Positions 25,694 to 31,856 of a DNA stretch of 44,795 nucleotides are shown one piece after another. The stretch lies in assembly GCA_937928005.1 (NCBI GenBank), contig CALFVD010000146.1, positions 1 to 44,795 of the forward strand. The letters are read 5' to 3'. This DNA comes from an uncultured Neomegalonema sp. (GTDB lineage Bacteria > Pseudomonadota > Alphaproteobacteria > Rhodobacterales > Rhodobacteraceae). A program made the position numbers and the translations under genes. The notes under the pieces were generated by a model, which ran no database searches, was not told the origin of the DNA, and was given only the letters and a program-made list of their open reading frames with translations. Each line of letters starts with the position of its first letter. Position 1 is the first letter of the stretch.

Positions 25694-25848
25694 AGACGGC
25701 CCCGGATGCGAGAGGATTTACTCCCTCACGCTATACGCCGTGATGCAGGGCGCAAGCAAAGCTTTCGATGAGAATGCAGGCAAACGAGGAATGACCCCTC
25801 GACCCAAAACCCCGCTAAAGTAGGCGAAAGTACGACAGCACAAGAAAA

Positions 25849-25864
25849 AATGGTGCCGCATAGG
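25849..25864. repeat. left attachment site (duplicate of tRNA-Thr 3' end)
   Basis: AATGGTGCCGCATAGG is identical to 31779-31794, which covers the 3' end of tRNA-Thr including the encoded CCA. Past the identity the two sequences remain partly alike for some 15 bases (GAACAC in both). This is the far att copy expected when an element integrates into the tRNA 3' end. Confidence 0.85.
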
Positions 25865-26006
25865 AGCACAGAACACGATATTCAGCCATATTCACTGATA
25901 ATCAGATTTCGTCATTTTCCATTGAATTTGCTCAATAAATTCCGCATATCGTTACTCAACGTTAATCATGGATCGTCACTTTTCGTTCCCCCCTATCAAG
26001 ATGTAG

Positions 26007-26018
26007 TGGGGGGACAGA
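26007..26018. repeat. left-end copy of TGGGGGGACAGA motif
   Basis: The 12-mer TGGGGGGACAGA occurs here, 28 bases before the integrase remnant's ATG, and again at 31716-31727 near the opposite end of the island. Paired motifs near both att sites are typical of integrase arm-binding sites. Confidence 0.5.
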
Positions 26019-26034
26019 GATTGGAGCGGGTCGG

Positions 26035-26106
26035 ATGGTGGCACTCAACAGGCTCTCGGCAAAGGCAGTGGAGAACGCCGTTGAAGGGAAGCATTGCGTC
26101 GTCTGA
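26035..26106 (+). pseudogene. N-terminal remnant of a P4-type tyrosine integrase
   Basis: ATG at 26035 opens a 23-codon frame reading MVALNRLSAKAVENAVEGKH and then three unrelated residues before a stop at 26104. The first 20 residues are the classical opening of P4-like/DUF4102 phage integrases (LNRLSAKAVENA...GKH), which bind arm DNA with this region. The family is about 400 residues long, so everything after the first helix has been lost. Its position just inside the left att site is where the integrase of such an element belongs. Confidence 0.68.
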
Positions 26107-26756
26107 GTGAGATAGCTTCACAGGGCATCTCTTACAGGCGTTCACGGACCATGCGTTGCCTGTCGTGGCGGGATAACCATGTGGTCGATGCGGCGATGCG
26201 GGCGGTCTTCGCTACGACGGCAAAGAGCGTGATGGAGGCAAACTATCTGCTGCATCGCGGGTGCAACCGAATCAACGTCATGTTGACGATCAACGCGGGG
26301 CCGATGGCGCGGGATGGAGAAACTGCACAGGCGGTTCTCCGCCGCGTGATGAAGCTGTGCGTCAATCTCTATCGCAACGTGCCCCAGACCTTCGCGGGTG
26401 TATGGCGATACGAGATTGGCACCGACCGATATGGAGGTTGCCACTACCATATCGCCTTTCACGCCCCGCGCGGGATGCGCGACCGTCTGCTTGATGCCCT
26501 GCAAGGATGGTTTGATGAACCGCTCGACCTCAAGCGGTCGTCGCGGTCGTTTCGGAATCCGAAGTGGAAAGCCTATGGCATACGCGGCGGCTGGCAGTTG
26601 TGCCGCATCTATGAACTCGACGGCGCACTCGACTACATCGCCAAGGTGCTAACGGACGGGAACGGTGAACCCCTGTCGCGGGCGGAACGTCTGGGCAATG
26701 CACGGGTGCGGGAATACGCGACTTTCGGGAGACGGAACAAGGACCGGACACCATGA
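26094..26756 (+). CDS. HUH-type replication-initiation-like protein
   Basis: Predicted single-tyrosine HUH endonuclease, 220 residues, resembling Rep proteins of rolling-circle replicons, filamentous phages and phage satellites. Motifs occur in the right order: motif 1 RINVMLTINAGP, the His-hydrophobic-His motif in GGCHYHIAFHAP, and the Tyr motif DYIAKVL with the usual Y-x2-K spacing. Such proteins nick a single-strand origin and hold the 5' end on Tyr. The frame opens at TTG 26094 behind GAAGGGA; ATG 26151 (MRCLSWRDN) is an alternative giving 201 residues and starting nearer to conserved sequence. The stop overlaps the next gene's start (ATGA), coupling it to the terminase subunit gene. Exact family not recognised; function is inferred from motifs. 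Confidence 0.68.
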   Translation: MRRLSEIASQGISYRRSRTMRCLSWRDNHVVDAAMRAVFATTAKSVMEANYLLHRGCNRINVMLTINAGPMARDGETAQAVLRRVMKLCVNLYRNVPQTFAGVWRYEIGTDRYGGCHYHIAFHAPRGMRDRLLDALQGWFDEPLDLKRSSRSFRNPKWKAYGIRGGWQLCRIYELDGALDYIAKVLTDGNGEPLSRAERLGNARVREYATFGRRNKDRTP

Positions 26757-27247
26757 CTGACGAAACGGCAGACCGCGACGACAAGGGACAATTCGCCCCC
26801 GGCAATCAGCTTTGGCGCAGGCGGGCGGTGCATGGGCGTCCCCCCGTCTTTGCAAATGGTGACGATCTGTGGTCCGCCTGTGTCGAGTATTTCGAGTGGA
26901 GCGCGGCGAACCCGCTTTACGAATACAGGGCTTTCGCCAACGGTGCCGTGGTGCCAGTGCCGAAGATGCGGGCGATGACGCTCAAGGCGCTGTGGCTGCA
27001 TCTCGGCATCGACCGGACGACGTGGAGCGAGTGGCGGGCGCGATCCGATTTATCCCCCGTCACGTCCCGCGTGGATAGCATCATTCACATCCAGAAATTC
27101 GAGGGCGCGGCGGCGGGTCTGCTGTCCCCCAACATCATCGCCCGCGACCTCGGCCTTGCGGAGAAGTCGGAGCATACCGCCGATGCGGGCGGGAACACGC
27201 TGGCGGCATTGCTGGAGCGGGTCGCGAAGGATGGGGAGCGTCTGTAA
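26753..27247 (+). CDS. phage DNA-packaging protein, terminase small subunit (P22 gp3-like)
   Basis: Phage terminase small subunit, the protein that recognises packaging sites and hands DNA to the large terminase. At 164 residues it follows the P22 gp3-like package pattern: GNQLWRRRAVHGRPPVFANG, then a helical CVEYFEWSAANPLYEYRAFANGAVVPVPKMRAMTLKALWLHLGI, then DRTTWSEWRA, and the C-terminal EGAAAGLLSPNIIARDLGLAEK. No large subunit accompanies it, so alone it could act only by redirecting a helper phage's motor, as in PICI-type satellites. It overlaps the Rep-like gene by four bases and is followed by a hairpin at 27331-27361. Confidence 0.85.
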   Translation: MTDETADRDDKGQFAPGNQLWRRRAVHGRPPVFANGDDLWSACVEYFEWSAANPLYEYRAFANGAVVPVPKMRAMTLKALWLHLGIDRTTWSEWRARSDLSPVTSRVDSIIHIQKFEGAAAGLLSPNIIARDLGLAEKSEHTADAGGNTLAALLERVAKDGERL

Positions 27248-27330
27248 AAGGGGCGTGACCCGCACCTTGACCGCATACGACCGATGCGCGACACCGTTAA
27301 CGGAATGTGTGGAAAGCGATCCAGTTGCAT

Positions 27331-27370
27331 AGGGAATTGCCCCAAGAGTGGGCATTTCCCTATTGTTTTC
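27331..27370 (+). terminator. hairpin terminator between terS and mod
   Basis: AGGGAATTGCCC (27331-27342) pairs with GGGCATTTCCCT (27350-27361) with a single mismatch and a 7-base loop, followed by ATTGTTTTC. It should end the rep-terS transcript and leave the restriction system under its own promoter, which would lie in the short AT-richer stretch around 27360-27400. Confidence 0.55.
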
Positions 27371-27412
27371 GGTCTGTTGGTCGCTTTTCACACTGGTTGC
27401 GAGGGGATACGG

Positions 27413-28942
27413 ATGCCGACGCTACGCTGGTTGACGCGGGACGAGGATGTGCGGGCGGCGGAGGGGGTTCCGTATCGCCTGCTCGAAGAGGACGCGGCGC
27501 TGGGCTATGGCGATCCGGCGGCGGGCAACATGCTCATTCAGGGCGACAATCTGGAGGCGTTGAAAGCCCTGCTCCCCTATTATGCGGGGCAGGTGAAATG
27601 CATCTATATCGACCCGCCCTATAACACCGGCTCAGCCTTTGAGCATTACGACGACAACCTCGAACATTCCCGCTGGCTGGCCATGATGTGGCCCCGGCTC
27701 GAACTGCTGCGCGAGTTGCTGGCGGAGGACGGGTCGATCTGGGTGAGTATCGATGACCGGGAGGCGCATTATCTCAAGGTCATTATGGATGAAGTTTTAG
27801 GACGAAATTCATTTCTAAATTCAATTTGCTGGCAGAGCCGATACTCCGTATCTAGCGATGCGATTTTTTCAAATTCTCACAACACCATACATGTTTATGC
27901 GCAAGATGTATCGAAGTGGAAAGGTGTAAGAAATAGAATTACTCGTACTGAGAAGCAAGCGAAGCAGTACAATAATCCAGACAATGATCCAAGGGGGCCT
28001 TGGCGCTCTATCCCTTGGGATGCACCTAATATTCGTGAGAATTTATCTTATGAGATTGTAACTCCCAAGGGGTCAATTAAGCGTCCACCTAAAGGGCGTT
28101 GCTGGTCAAGAACAGAGGCGCAATGGCTTAGGTTAGTTGAAGATGGGCTGGCTTATTTTGGTAAGAATGAAGATGGCGCACCTGCATTCAAAAGGTTCTT
28201 GAAGGACGATCCCGGTGTAGTGCCGAATACGTGGTGGCAACACGAGGATGCAGGTCACACCGACGAAGCGAAAAAAGAGGCGTATGCCCTCCTTGGCGAA
28301 GAGCCTTTTGATACGCCTAAACCAGAGAGGCTAATTCAGCGCATATTACAAATCGCCACAAACCCCGGCGACCTCGTTCTCGACTCCTTCCTCGGCTCCG
28401 GTACGACGGCGGCGGTGGCGCAGAAGATGGGGCGGCGGTATATCGGCATCGAAATGGGCGACCATGCCGTCACCCATTGCGTCCCGCGCCTGCAAAAGGT
28501 CATCGACGGGGAACAGGGCGGGATTTCCAAGGCGCAGGACTGGCAAGGGGGCGGGGGCTATCGCTTCTATCGCCTCGGCCCGCCGGTCTTCGATGAAGAC
28601 GGACGCCTGCAACCCGATATCCGCTTTCCCGTATTGGCCGCGCATGTGTGGTTTGCGGAGACGGGCGCGCCCCTGACCGTACCTGATAGCCCATCGCTTT
28701 TTCTGGGCATCCAAGACGGCCATGGCTATGCCTTACTCTATAACGGTATTCTGGGCGATAAATCCGTCAATGGCGGCAATGTCCTGACCCGCAAAACGCT
28801 GGGCATTATCCGCGATGCTGCGGGCGATTTCGATGGCCCACTCACGGTCTATGGCGAACGCACGGCCCTGTCAGACACAACGCTCAAGGCGGAGCGCATC
28901 ACTTTCAAACAGACCCCTTATGATGTGAGGGCCAGAGCATGA
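27413..28942 (+). CDS. mod: type III restriction-modification methyltransferase (Mod)
   Basis: Site-specific adenine-N6 DNA methyltransferase, modification subunit of a type III system, 509 residues. It has the beta-class motif order: DPPYNTG (67-73, catalytic) early, and the SAM-binding DSFLGSGTTA (about 323-332) late. Between them, residues about 123-310 form the target recognition domain, whose DNA is visibly AT-richer than the flanks and uses different codons, suggesting a swapped cassette. The ATG at 27413 is chosen for its GAGGGG ribosome-binding site; the frame is open back to 27284 but the extra residues are not family-like. It is followed by the res gene 24 bases on, separated by a short tandem repeat. 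Confidence 0.93.
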   Translation: MPTLRWLTRDEDVRAAEGVPYRLLEEDAALGYGDPAAGNMLIQGDNLEALKALLPYYAGQVKCIYIDPPYNTGSAFEHYDDNLEHSRWLAMMWPRLELLRELLAEDGSIWVSIDDREAHYLKVIMDEVLGRNSFLNSICWQSRYSVSSDAIFSNSHNTIHVYAQDVSKWKGVRNRITRTEKQAKQYNNPDNDPRGPWRSIPWDAPNIRENLSYEIVTPKGSIKRPPKGRCWSRTEAQWLRLVEDGLAYFGKNEDGAPAFKRFLKDDPGVVPNTWWQHEDAGHTDEAKKEAYALLGEEPFDTPKPERLIQRILQIATNPGDLVLDSFLGSGTTAAVAQKMGRRYIGIEMGDHAVTHCVPRLQKVIDGEQGGISKAQDWQGGGGYRFYRLGPPVFDEDGRLQPDIRFPVLAAHVWFAETGAPLTVPDSPSLFLGIQDGHGYALLYNGILGDKSVNGGNVLTRKTLGIIRDAAGDFDGPLTVYGERTALSDTTLKAERITFKQTPYDVRARA

Positions 28943-28964
28943 GGATATGGGCATGAGGATATGG
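28937..28964 (+). repeat. two tandem 14-bp repeats at the mod-res junction
   Basis: GCATGAGGATATGG occurs twice in direct contact (28937-28950, 28951-28964), with GCATGA starting a third copy. The first copy includes the mod stop codon and the second supplies the GAGG ribosome-binding sequence for res. Copy-number change would alter the spacing but not the reading frame of either gene. Confidence 0.8.
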
Positions 28965-28966
28965 GC

Positions 28967-31642
28967 ATGATCCTCAAGGATTATCAGACCGCAACGCTCG
29001 CAACCCTGCGCCGCTATCTGGAGGATGCACGGGTCAGTGGCCCCGCAACCGCCTATGAGGCGATCACGACGGACCCCGAACAGGCCGCGCGCCTGCATGG
29101 CTATGGCGGGAAGTACAAGCCGCTCAAGTGGCGCGAGGGCGTGCCCTATGTCTGCCTGCGTCTGCCCACGGGGGGCGGCAAGACGATCCTCGCCGCGCAT
29201 TCGATCACGGTCGCCAAGGACGCATGGATCGAAAAGGATTACCCGCTGGTCCTGTGGCTAGTACCGACGAACACGATCCGGCGGCAAACCGTCGATGCGC
29301 TCAAGAACACTCGCCATGCCTATCGTAAGGTGCTGGACGAGGCATTCGACGGACGGGTGCGCGTGTTTGACATTGGCGACTTTACACAGATTGCGCCCCA
29401 TGACCTGCGCTCGAATTGCTGCATCGTGGTCGGTACGATCCAGACCTTGCGCGTCTCGAACACCGATGGCCGCAAGGTCTATGCCCATCACGAAATGCTG
29501 GAACCGCATTTCTCGGCTGTCTCGCCCAATACGGCGGGGCTGGAGCGCAACGATGACGGCCCACATAAGGGCGATATCCGTTTCAGTTTCGTGAACCTGA
29601 TGCACCTGCATCGCCCGCTGGTCATCATGGACGAGGCGCATAAGGCAGGCTCGAAGCTCTCTAAGGAAGTGTATGACCGCACGAACCCTTGCGCCTTGCT
29701 CGAATTCACGGCAACGCCCAAGGGCTTCAACAACATCCTGCATTCCGTCTCCGCTCAGGAATTGAAAGCGGAGGAAATGATAAAGATGCCGGTCGTTCTG
29801 GCGGAGCATCAAACATGGCAATCCGCAGTGAATGGCGCGATAGCCAAACGGGCGGAATTGCAGGAATACGCCGATAACGACCGTAAAGGCTATATCCGCC
29901 CCATCGTTCTGTTTCAGGCGGAGAGCAAGGGGAACGAGGTCACGGTCGATGTGCTCAAAAGCCATTTAATCGAACAGGAAAACATCGACCCGGCAAAGAT
30001 TGCCGTGGCCACGGGCGAACAGCGCGAACTCGATGGCCTAAATCTGTTCGATGCCGATTGTCCCGTCGAATTCATCATTACGATGGAGGCACTGAAAGAG
30101 GGGTGGGATTGCAGCTTTGCTTACGTCTTCTGCTCGGTCGCCAATATCCGTAGCGCGACCGATGCAGAGCAACTGCTGGGCCGCGTGCTGCGGATGCCCT
30201 ACGCCCAGAAGCGCAAGAATCCAAAGCTGAACAAATCCTATGCCGCGCTTATCTCGAAATCCTTCATGGAAGCGGCCCACGCCCTGCGCGACAAGCTGGT
30301 CGATATGGGCTTCAACGAAACCGAAGCCGAACAGAATATCGAAGCGGAAAACCCCGAAATGGGCGAAGGTCTGTTCGGTCGCCAGACCCGCCCCAAACCT
30401 TCTGTCTCGGTGGAGGTGGATATCGACCCGCAAGAGGTTGTGGGTATCGAAAAGGTGGCCCCCGGTAAGATCACCCTCGGTAAGTCGGACGAAGGGCGCA
30501 CCATCGTTAAGATCACGGGCTTTCTGAAAGCACGCGAGAAAGAACGCCTCTTCGAGAACACACCCGTTAAGGCGCATGGCGTGCTGCGCGAACGGATCGA
30601 AACCTATGAAGCGGAGAACCTACACGTCGCGACTCCCGCCGAACGGGGCGAGACGTTCATCGTTCCGCGCCTCATGGCATCGGTGCAGGGGGAAATGGTT
30701 TTCGCGGATACAGACATTCTCATGGAGCATCACGACTGGTCCCTGCGCGATCATCCCGCGCGGCTGGATAAATCCGAATTCAATGTGGTGGAGACGGCGG
30801 ATATCTTTGAGATACGGCTGGACGGCGATAAAGTGACGATCTCCGCAGCCGATATGACCGAACAGCTATTGCTCGAAGTCGATGTAGAGGGCTGGAGCGA
30901 CGCACATCTTGTTCGCTGGCTGGATAAGAAGATACGTGACCCGCGCATTGGCCAAGGCGAGTTGCTGGCGTGGCTGGGCGATGTCGTGACCTATCTGACC
31001 CGCGACCGCGCCCTACCCATCGCGCAGTTGATGCGCTGCAAATTTATCCTCGCCCGCAAGCTGGCCGATAAGTTGAACGCGATCCGGGCGGCGGAGCAAA
31101 ACACGGTCTATCAGCTTCACCTCTTCGCACCCGATGCCAAACCAGAAGTCAGTTTCGAGACGGGCTTTGAATTCTTTGATGGCATGTATGACGGCGTGCC
31201 GAAACATCGCGGCACGGTCTACGGCTTCAACAAGCATTTCGCAGGACCGGACGAGATACCCGCTTTCGACGGCAAGGACGGAGGCGAAGAACAGAAATGC
31301 GCGGTCATTCTGGACGGTATCCCGGAAATCGAATTCTGGTCGCGCAATGTCTCAAGGCATCCGAACTCGTTCCGCCTGCCAACGGCGACGGGCAATTTCT
31401 ATCCTGATTTCGTGGCCAAGCTGAACGACGGGCGCATCCTCGTGGTCGAATACAAGGGCCAACAACACGCCGATGAACAGGAAACCGCCGATACCCGCGC
31501 CAAGCGCATCATCGGTGAACACTGGCAATCGGTATCCGGTGGGCAGGGTGTGTTCGTGCTGGCAACAATGAAAACCGGCGACGCGGGCGAAATCCGTCAA
31601 CAGGTGAACGACGCTTTGGCGAGTGCAAAGCAACTATCCTGA
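28967..31642 (+). CDS. res: type III restriction enzyme (Res), ATP-dependent helicase-nuclease
   Basis: Restriction subunit of the type III system, 891 residues, which with Mod cuts unmethylated foreign DNA after ATP-driven movement. SF2 helicase motifs are clear: Walker A LPTGGGKT (about 66-73), DEAH box IMDEAHKAGSKL (about 220-230), LEFTATPKGF, and in the second RecA fold TMEALKEGWDCSFAYVFCSV and QLLGRVLRMP. The C-terminal PD-(D/E)XK nuclease is present as PDFVAKLNDGRILVVEYKG (about 814-832). No stop or frameshift was seen. The ATG at 28967 lies eight bases behind GAGG; 28961 adds two residues and is less likely. Confidence 0.94.
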   Translation: MILKDYQTATLATLRRYLEDARVSGPATAYEAITTDPEQAARLHGYGGKYKPLKWREGVPYVCLRLPTGGGKTILAAHSITVAKDAWIEKDYPLVLWLVPTNTIRRQTVDALKNTRHAYRKVLDEAFDGRVRVFDIGDFTQIAPHDLRSNCCIVVGTIQTLRVSNTDGRKVYAHHEMLEPHFSAVSPNTAGLERNDDGPHKGDIRFSFVNLMHLHRPLVIMDEAHKAGSKLSKEVYDRTNPCALLEFTATPKGFNNILHSVSAQELKAEEMIKMPVVLAEHQTWQSAVNGAIAKRAELQEYADNDRKGYIRPIVLFQAESKGNEVTVDVLKSHLIEQENIDPAKIAVATGEQRELDGLNLFDADCPVEFIITMEALKEGWDCSFAYVFCSVANIRSATDAEQLLGRVLRMPYAQKRKNPKLNKSYAALISKSFMEAAHALRDKLVDMGFNETEAEQNIEAENPEMGEGLFGRQTRPKPSVSVEVDIDPQEVVGIEKVAPGKITLGKSDEGRTIVKITGFLKAREKERLFENTPVKAHGVLRERIETYEAENLHVATPAERGETFIVPRLMASVQGEMVFADTDILMEHHDWSLRDHPARLDKSEFNVVETADIFEIRLDGDKVTISAADMTEQLLLEVDVEGWSDAHLVRWLDKKIRDPRIGQGELLAWLGDVVTYLTRDRALPIAQLMRCKFILARKLADKLNAIRAAEQNTVYQLHLFAPDAKPEVSFETGFEFFDGMYDGVPKHRGTVYGFNKHFAGPDEIPAFDGKDGGEEQKCAVILDGIPEIEFWSRNVSRHPNSFRLPTATGNFYPDFVAKLNDGRILVVEYKGQQHADEQETADTRAKRIIGEHWQSVSGGQGVFVLATMKTGDAGEIRQQVNDALASAKQLS

Positions 31643-31703
31643 TTTCTGGCGCTGTATCGCAGGCTATCGGATGCAGAAAATGCGATGCCCTACCGCGCGC
31701 AGA

Positions 31704-31730
31704 TGGGGGGACAAATGGGGGGACAGAAAA
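31704..31730. repeat. right-end copies of the TGGGGGGACA motif
   Basis: TGGGGGGACA occurs at 31704-31713 and again, extended to TGGGGGGACAGAAAA, at 31716-31730. The extended copy matches the left-end site at 26007 over 12 bases. Two copies at one end and one at the other suits an integrase arm-site arrangement. Confidence 0.5.
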
Positions 31731-31778
31731 CCTCCCCAAATGAGATTTCTCATTAACATCAGTCATTTAGCAATGAGT

Positions 31779-31794
31779 AATGGTGCCGCATAGG
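31779..31794. repeat. right attachment site within tRNA-Thr 3' end
   Basis: Identical to 25849-25864. Here it forms the acceptor stem 3' strand and CCA end of the intact tRNA gene, so integration restored a complete tRNA. Confidence 0.85.
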
Positions 31795-31856
31795 TGACTC
31801 GAACACCTGACCCCATCATTACGAATGATGTGCTCTACCAACTGAGCTAATGCGGC
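31781..31856 (-). tRNA. tRNA-Thr, anticodon CGT
   Basis: On the minus strand the 76 bases fold as a standard cloverleaf. Acceptor GCCGCAT pairs with ATGCGGC; the D arm GCTC...GAGC is followed by the anticodon stem CATCA/TGATG with loop TTCGTAA, giving anticodon CGT, which reads ACG (Thr). The T arm is AGGTG/CACCT with loop TTCGAGT, and A-CCA is encoded. It is the integration target of the island to its left. Confidence 0.95.

What the first reader, a model, noticed from the sequence alone, without database searches (positions are those of the whole stretch)
25849..31794. Compact tRNA-Thr island carrying Rep-TerS plus a type III restriction system
Seen directly: a 16-bp copy of the tRNA-Thr 3' end at 25849 and the intact tRNA at 31781-31856 bracket about 5.9 kb. 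Inside are an HUH Rep-like gene, a terminase small subunit, complete mod and res, and nothing structural. Established: phage-inducible chromosomal islands and other satellites carry terS without capsid genes and often carry defence cargo. Inference: this is a minimal satellite, or a prophage pared to rep, terS and a restriction system. The near absence of other genes would put it among the smallest such islands, and a type III system as its only cargo is notable.
Basis: partly seen in the sequence, partly recalled or inferred. Interest (0 to 1): 0.85.

Follow-up and report, generated by a model that had tools for sequence, protein, structure and literature searches.

The report
Satellite-like island with deleted integrase
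A 5.9-kb island at a tRNA-Thr gene carries a predicted replication gene, a phage DNA-packaging gene and a type III restriction system, but only the first 19 codons of the integrase-type gene start seen in a related genome remain, so it is likely a phage satellite grounded in the chromosome that would now serve its host mainly as a defence locus.

Summary
In detail: a 16-bp copy of the tRNA-Thr end and the tRNA bracket about 5.9 kb with a predicted HUH Rep, a P22 gp3-type TerS, Mod and Res, and no structural gene.

Just inside the left repeat lie an arm-site-like repeat and the first 57 bases of an Arm-DNA-bind_3 integrase gene, identical to a same-genus integrase start that stays open to its contig end. 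At about 26092 the match stops and runs into a rep gene lacking the N-terminus that five of 11 homologues have. The integrase was probably lost by deletion.

Rep is very rare (11 other proteins found). TerS belongs to an isolated six-member clade, two other members of which probably sit beside Rep. This favours a satellite-type lineage over a pared-down prophage. No helper or activity was shown.

Mod-res recurs beside a tRNA-Thr-like gene in a same-genus genome bin, with a different specificity region.

The terS-mod spacer holds a nested palindrome that is dispersed in the genus, strongly covarying, and without an Rfam match.

Verdict: real, partly as interpreted; a new variant of a known kind.

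The parts
25849..25876 (+). left att-like copy of the tRNA-Thr 3' end (first 16 bases exact)
26007..26018 (+). arm-site-like repeat TGGGGGGACAGA, left end (two tandem copies in G003, one here)
26035..26091 (+). integrase 5' remnant, 19 codons; then 4 other codons and a stop; deletion junction at about 26092
   Evidence: 57 of 57 bases identical to G003:C81, then 19 of 53; translations; G003 fragment P0131 is PF13356 Arm-DNA-bind_3, 30.7 bits against cut-off 27
26094..26756 (+). predicted HUH Rep (REP_ORF2/G2P-like), N-terminus shortened at the junction (an alternative ATG start lies at 26151)
26753..27247 (+). terminase small subunit, P22 gp3 type (PF16677, phrog_606)
27309..27398 (+). nested palindrome (approximate limits), one copy of a repeat dispersed in the genus
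   Evidence: no Rfam match to the copies in 8 loci
27413..28942 (+). type III Mod methyltransferase; the region 27815-28339 differs strongly from the G001 relative (specificity region)
28961..31642 (+). type III Res, full-length match to PADLOC PDLC03650
31704..31727 (+). two tandem arm-site-like repeats (TGGGGGGACAAA, TGGGGGGACAGA) at the right end
   Evidence: also in the G001 relative at L119 3850-3868
31781..31856 (-). tRNA-Thr(CGU), the target gene; its 3' end is the right att-like copy (31779-31794)

Best explanation
This is a tRNA-Thr island whose integrase gene is reduced to its first 19 codons, likely the grounded remnant of a phage satellite that would have replicated through Rep and been packaged through TerS, and now likely held by the host for its type III restriction system. 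Shown by sequence: the att-like repeats, the arm-like repeats near both ends, the integrase start identical to G003 followed by loss of identity, and the complete mod and res. Inferred: (1) the ancestor entered the tRNA-Thr gene with a P4-type integrase; (2) a deletion removed the integrase body and the first roughly 25 codons of rep; (3) Rep nicks an origin and makes rolling-circle multimers; (4) TerS marks that DNA for a helper phage's large terminase and capsid by the pac/headful route of P22 gp3; (5) without its own integrase the island stays put, while Mod methylates and Res cuts unmethylated invading DNA. Exchange of the Mod specificity region between species would change the target sequence.
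For: Att repeats. The left end (window 25848-26101) is 90% identical over 266 nt in same-genus G003:C81, at another chromosomal place, and continues there into an open integrase N-terminus with PF13356; 57 of 57 bases of its start match the window, then 19 of 53. Five of 11 Rep homologues (P0003, P0006, P0007, P0009, P0132) have about 24-26 residues before the LSE(I/V)AS(Q/R)GI stretch with which the window Rep begins. HUH-type residues H117, H119, Y181 and K184 are invariant in 10 sequences; homologue P0006 passes the PF23343 cut-off. TerS: PF16677 79.2 bits; in a 76-row tree the window and P0012-P0016 form one clade, SH-aLRT 100, stem 1.05 changes per column. P0002/P0012 and P0006/P0016 share longest-contig lengths 2244 and 3861, so the rep-terS pair probably recurs. 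Same-genus G006 has the locus without the island. mod-res plus right arms recur at a tRNA-Thr-like gene in G001, with the Mod specificity region 78 of 175 residues identical against 183 of 200 beyond it. The own genome shows no other integrase of this N-terminal type and none like the G001 integrase.
Against: No function was tested. The window Rep itself is below the PF23343 cut-off (20.1 against 27.8), and its model has no PDB match at E <= 0.001; of the 11 BFVD matches at E <= 0.001 the only named one is a replication protein, with low TM-scores. The rep-terS recurrence rests on equal contig lengths, not on DNA seen. A further equal length, P0005/P0067 (2635), links Rep to a TerS outside the clade. 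Arm-like motifs are not specific outside the genus: the spaced pattern is in 6 of 14 genus genomes with no control hit, but in 6 of 133 others against 9 with a reversed-pattern control hit. The genome is a fragmented assembly (209 contigs, 86.9% complete), so a mis-join at 26092 is not excluded. The own genome has 9 other PF00589 recombinases and 2 terminase large subunits, so mobilisation in trans or a resident helper is not excluded.
Confidence: 0.6

Rival explanations
1. The island is still a working satellite that is moved in trans: a related integrase from another element recognises its arm and att sites, like a cis-mobilisable element or a MITE.
For: Att and arm-like repeats are kept at both ends; rep and terS are open; a related integrase start with the same left end exists in the genus; such integrase-type genes are common there (11 of 14 genus genomes match P0131, the own genome only by the remnant). 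Loss of a recombinase with trans mobilisation is an established route for MITEs and CALINs (PMC11389934, passages).
Against: No integrase of this type in the own genome (86.9% complete); one of two left arm repeats is missing compared with G003; the rep 5' end is gone as well.
Confidence: 0.15
2. Remnant of an ordinary P22-like prophage pared down to rep, terS and a restriction system.
For: The TerS family is a phage family (913 of 50,697 phage records match), and in IMG/VR and GTDB loci it is mostly followed by one large-gene cluster (43 of 63 loci; taken as TerL by position, not annotated).
Against: No Rep match in the phage records or in the IMG/VR pattern scans; no Rep among 961 ORFs of the 63 TerS loci; the TerS is outside the phage TerS sampled in the tree; no relative among 40 carries it.
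Confidence: 0.12
3. A plasmid-derived or mobilisable integrative element: Rep comes from a small rolling-circle plasmid and TerS is a chance passenger.
For: The one distant Rep relative among 394 family genomes (E 7.5e-9) lies on a 7.66-kb contig with a 127-bp terminal overlap and ORFs that look like ParA and a plasmid initiator (names by inspection).
Against: Probable recurrence of rep-terS in two further contigs, and no Rep match in 72,556 plasmid records.
Confidence: 0.1
4. The integrase-rep junction is an assembly chimera, so the island is larger than it looks.
For: Metagenome-type assembly of 209 contigs; several same-genus contigs end near this tRNA (5 of 13 within 1.3 kb on the island side).
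Against: The contig runs on through both flanks with matching att repeats, and each gene on the right is complete.
Confidence: 0.07

Closest known systems
PICI, phage-inducible chromosomal islands (PMC6092414, passages seen)
   Same: Small, att-bounded, no structural genes; some carry terS beside a replication module
   Different: PICIs have int, a regulator (stl or alpA) and a primase/Rep module; here int is a 19-codon remnant, no regulator was found and the replication gene is a predicted HUH Rep
PICMI (PMC10803314, passages seen)
   Same: Very small island; that paper reports rolling-circle replication, headful-like packaging and defence genes
   Different: PICMI has int, alpA and a primase, and no terS homologue was found there; it lies at fis in Vibrionaceae
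MITE and CALIN, elements that lost their recombinase (PMC11389934, passages seen)
   Same: Recombination sites kept, recombinase lost
   Different: This element keeps replication, packaging and defence genes
Type III restriction-modification systems (EcoP1I/EcoP15I type; names recalled)
   Same: mod-res operon; Mod with N6/N4 methylase domain and a variable specificity region; Res with a helicase domain
   Different: Carried on a tRNA island beside rep and terS; the Res endonuclease domain is only a weak Pfam match

Membership tests
PICI / phage satellite | att-bounded island without structural genes | tested here: met
PICI / phage satellite | own integrase | tested here: not met
   19-codon remnant only; a same-genus element with this left end has an integrase start, cut by the contig end
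PICI / phage satellite | AlpA- or Stl-type regulator | tested here: not met
   no such ORF in the ORF list (60 aa or longer) or in the family scans of the island proteins
PICI / phage satellite | own replication module | tested here: inconclusive
   predicted HUH Rep instead of primase-Rep; activity not tested
PICI / phage satellite | packaging redirection (terS, or a pac or cos site) | tested here: met
   terS present; use not tested
PICI / phage satellite | induction and packaging by a helper phage | not testable with these tools
   needs culture; two TerL genes in the genome, helper unknown
PICMI | int, alpA and primase at fis, no terS | tested here: not met
   features from passages of PMC10803314
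Tyrosine-integrase (Arm-DNA-bind_3) tRNA island | insertion at a tRNA 3' end with direct repeat, arm-type repeats and int near an end | tested here: inconclusive
   repeats present; integrase only as a remnant; arm function not tested
HUH Rep, REP_ORF2/G2P (PF23343) | profile match over cut-off and HxH plus Tyr motifs | tested here: inconclusive
   window 20.1 against 27.8; homologue P0006 30.3 over the cut-off; motif residues invariant in 10 rows
P22 gp3-type TerS (PF16677) | profile match over cut-off | tested here: met
   79.2 against 29.4; phrog_606 E 2e-41
Type III restriction-modification | full-length Mod and Res | tested here: met
   PDLC03644 positions 1-541/542 and PDLC03650 positions 4-895/898
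Type III restriction-modification | Res endonuclease domain | tested here: inconclusive
   PF19778 at 11.9 bits against 23.4

The most novel reading that the evidence does not exclude
An undescribed satellite family of uncultivated bacteria pairs a microvirus/filamentous-phage-like HUH Rep (rolling circle) with its own divergent P22 gp3-type TerS (headful). The copy here lost its integrase and became grounded: on helper infection Rep and TerS would still start replication and packaging in place, sending host DNA next to the tRNA out in phage particles (lateral-transduction-like) while its restriction system protects the host.
Probability: 0.2. Interest if true: 0.7.

Novelty: new variant of a known kind. 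Interest (0 to 1): 0.45.

Why it matters
It shows a concrete step by which a mobile satellite-like island can turn into a fixed host defence locus: the integrase is deleted, while replication, packaging and restriction genes stay open. If the rep-terS pair defines a family, it would add a satellite type built on an HUH Rep and a gp3-type TerS, to my recall not among the described families. It also makes testable whether an integrase-less satellite can still be packaged in place.

Tried and rejected
Tried without gain: Rep in IMG/VR, GTDB contigs, phages and plasmids, no relatives; these IMG/VR and GTDB scans need a peptide pattern first. TerS profile in GTDB contigs gave 14 loci, none over 60% identity. 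The arm 20-mer in IMG/VR hit two contigs with transposase-like ORFs of another kind of phage (L121, L122; by inspection), taken as chance. The exact arm pattern was in 1 of 248 family genomes, the own one. The rest of the G003 integrase was not found in that genome. Arm hits in G008 and G013 lie near tRNA-Leu and tRNA-Thr(TGT); their islands were not worked out.

Considered and rejected: the spacer palindrome as the specific Rep origin, because copies occur in genus genomes where neither Rep nor TerS was found. One of 13 palindrome copies (L177) was left out of the alignment because its core did not fit my search expression. The palindrome structure was drawn from these sequences, which favours it against the slid controls.

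Literature: searches found nothing; others gave lists. Passages only were seen of PMC10803314, PMC11389934 and PMC6092414; other papers only as listing. No described HUH-Rep plus TerS satellite was found with these searches, which is weak evidence.
Full report
Observation. The window's only tRNA is tRNA-Thr(CGU), 31781-31856, minus strand. A 16-bp exact copy of its 3' end lies at 25849-25864 (0 of 100 shuffles reach two copies), and the match extends to 28 nt at 82%. Between them are rep, terS, mod and res, and no structural gene was found. TerS matches PF16677 with 79.2 bits and phrog_606 with E 2e-41. Mod and Res match PADLOC type III models over nearly their whole length. Rep matches PF23343 only below the cut-off (20.1 against 27.8), but homologue P0006 passes it, and H117, H119, Y181 and K184 are invariant in ten sequences. 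The Rep model (pLDDT 80, pTM 0.78) has 11 BFVD matches at E <= 0.001, of which one is named (replication protein of a Vibrio cholerae phage); named microvirus replication initiators follow at 1.4e-3 and above. It has none in PDB at that level; the best is an AAV2 origin-binding domain at 0.026.

The missed integrase. A search of same-genus genomes for the spaced repeat GGGGACA-N5-GGGGACA led to contig G003:C81. There the island's left end (window 25848-26101) recurs at 90% over 266 nt at a different chromosomal place and continues into an open reading frame, MVALNRLSAKAVENAVEGKYYDGGGLFLRV..., which matches Arm-DNA-bind_3 (PF13356, 30.7 bits, cut-off 27). The contig ends after 46 codons of it. 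In the window the same frame starts at 26035 and is identical for 57 of 57 bases; after that only 19 of 53 bases agree and the frame stops four codons later. Exactly there the rep frame begins, and it lacks the 24-26 residues that five of 11 homologues (P0003, P0006, P0007, P0009, P0132) have upstream of the LSE(I/V)AS(Q/R)GI stretch. The simplest reading is one deletion that took the integrase body and the start of rep. A third genome, G010, keeps only a bare left end of about 139 bp. In all, 3 of 14 genus genomes show the left end.

Ends. Arm-like repeats TGGGGGGACA(A/G)A lie at 26007-26018 and, in tandem, at 31704-31727. G003 has two tandem copies at the left where the window has one. The tandem pattern, up to three mismatches, occurs once in the window; 5 of 100 shuffles had at least one. 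In 14 genus genomes the spaced pattern occurs in 6, with no reversed-pattern control hit; in the other 133 genomes it occurs in 6 against 9 with a control hit. So it means something inside the genus only.

Site. Same-genus G006 has the sseA-like gene (80.9% over 849 nt), a BLUF gene (PF04940) and tRNA-Thr without the island; it is therefore an unoccupied but not a base-for-base empty site. In 5 of 13 same-genus genomes the contig ends within 1.3 kb of this tRNA on the island side, as expected of a variable site. In G001 a 4,091-bp contig carries the C-terminal half of mod, all of res (86% over 3.3 kb) and the right arm repeats directly beside a tRNA-Thr-like gene (85.5%, by blastn). Mod there is 78 of 175 identical over residues 135-309 and 183 of 200 over 310-509: the specificity region differs, the rest is conserved. 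G001 has another tRNA-Thr copy on another contig, so that contig may belong to a different organism.

Lineage of Rep and TerS. Rep: 10 proteins including the window's own at E <= 0.001 and 12 with the profile at E <= 1e-5 (only the 7,994 best candidates scored), so 11 others in all. No relatives came from phages, plasmids, IMG/VR or GTDB contigs, the last two searched by peptide patterns. In 394 family genomes the only other match is a distant one (E 7.5e-9) on a small contig with overlapping ends. TerS: 2,411 relatives, but a 76-row tree puts the window with P0012-P0016 alone on a long stem (SH-aLRT 100, quick method). P0012 and P0016 have the same longest-contig lengths as Rep homologues P0002 and P0006 (2,244 and 3,861 bp), which suggests recurrence of the pair; P0005 and P0067 (2,635 bp) also agree although P0067 is outside the clade, so length agreement is not proof. 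In 63 TerS loci, 43 hold one common large-gene cluster, usually next to TerS (taken as TerL by position), and none of 961 ORFs matched the Rep profile. The window's TerS was not found in 40 relatives. rep-terS DNA was found only in the own genome among 14 (capped at 24 scored candidates per genome).

Mobility now. The own genome has no other match to the integrase start or to the G001 integrase, but nine PF00589 hits and two terminase large subunits. It is 86.9% complete in 209 contigs. So lack of mobility is likely, not proven, and a helper cannot be named.

Spacer palindrome. The terS-mod spacer folds far better than its shuffles (z -4.24). Part of it matches intergenic stretches in G009, G013, G010 and G006. 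Twelve of 13 copies align. Of 32 pairs, 15 have changes on both sides; 92.9% of cells pair, against at most 45.7% when slid by 1-3 columns; the covariation score is 0.394, against at most 0.112 slid and 0.163 shuffled. Three of the copies are near-identical and come from one genome (G013), and the structure was drawn from these sequences. Rfam gave no match to the copies in 8 loci, and the exact core is absent from IMG/VR. It is a separate, possibly more novel, feature of the genus.

Verdict. The island is best read as a satellite-type element grounded by an integrase deletion and carrying a restriction system as cargo. The integrase deletion is well supported; the satellite nature is an inference from Rep, TerS and the lack of structural genes; packaging, replication and restriction are untested.

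Noticed in passing
window 27309-27398; L175, L176, L178, L179, L180, L183-L188: Dispersed nested palindrome of about 90 nt with an invariant TTGCCCCAAGAG.GGGC core and strong compensatory changes in both stems; no Rfam match to the copies in 8 loci. Could be a REP- or MITE-like repeat or a structured RNA.
   Followed up: partly
L110 4519-6762 (G003:C1): tRNA-Thr with a 49-bp exact partial copy about 2.1 kb away, bracketing a 543-aa ORF with a weak Astacin match (22.3 against 22.5 bits) and no integrase.
   Followed up: partly
L196 1364-7001 (G001:C109) and L195 7146-12287 (G010:C8): A helix-turn-helix-like ORF plus a 341-343 aa tyrosine-recombinase-like ORF (PF00589) stands beside a type III mod-res in one island and beside a 1,157-aa ORF that looks like a type I restriction subunit in another (ORF readings partly by inspection).
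   Followed up: no
L193 1-3933 (G001:C10): Integrase C-terminus, AlpA/HTH_17-like ORF, Prim-Pol and DUF927 protein in a row: another island with a satellite-like replication module.
   Followed up: partly
L150 1440-1578 (G010:C45): Bare left end of this element family, without the integrase start, downstream of a gene that looks like moaA and beside a sulfatase-like gene (gene names by inspection).
   Followed up: partly
L121 10265-10284, L122 14-33: Tandem GGGGGGACAAAT repeats near transposase-like genes in two viral contigs, perhaps transposase-binding ends of Mu-like phages; probably unrelated (by inspection).
   Followed up: no
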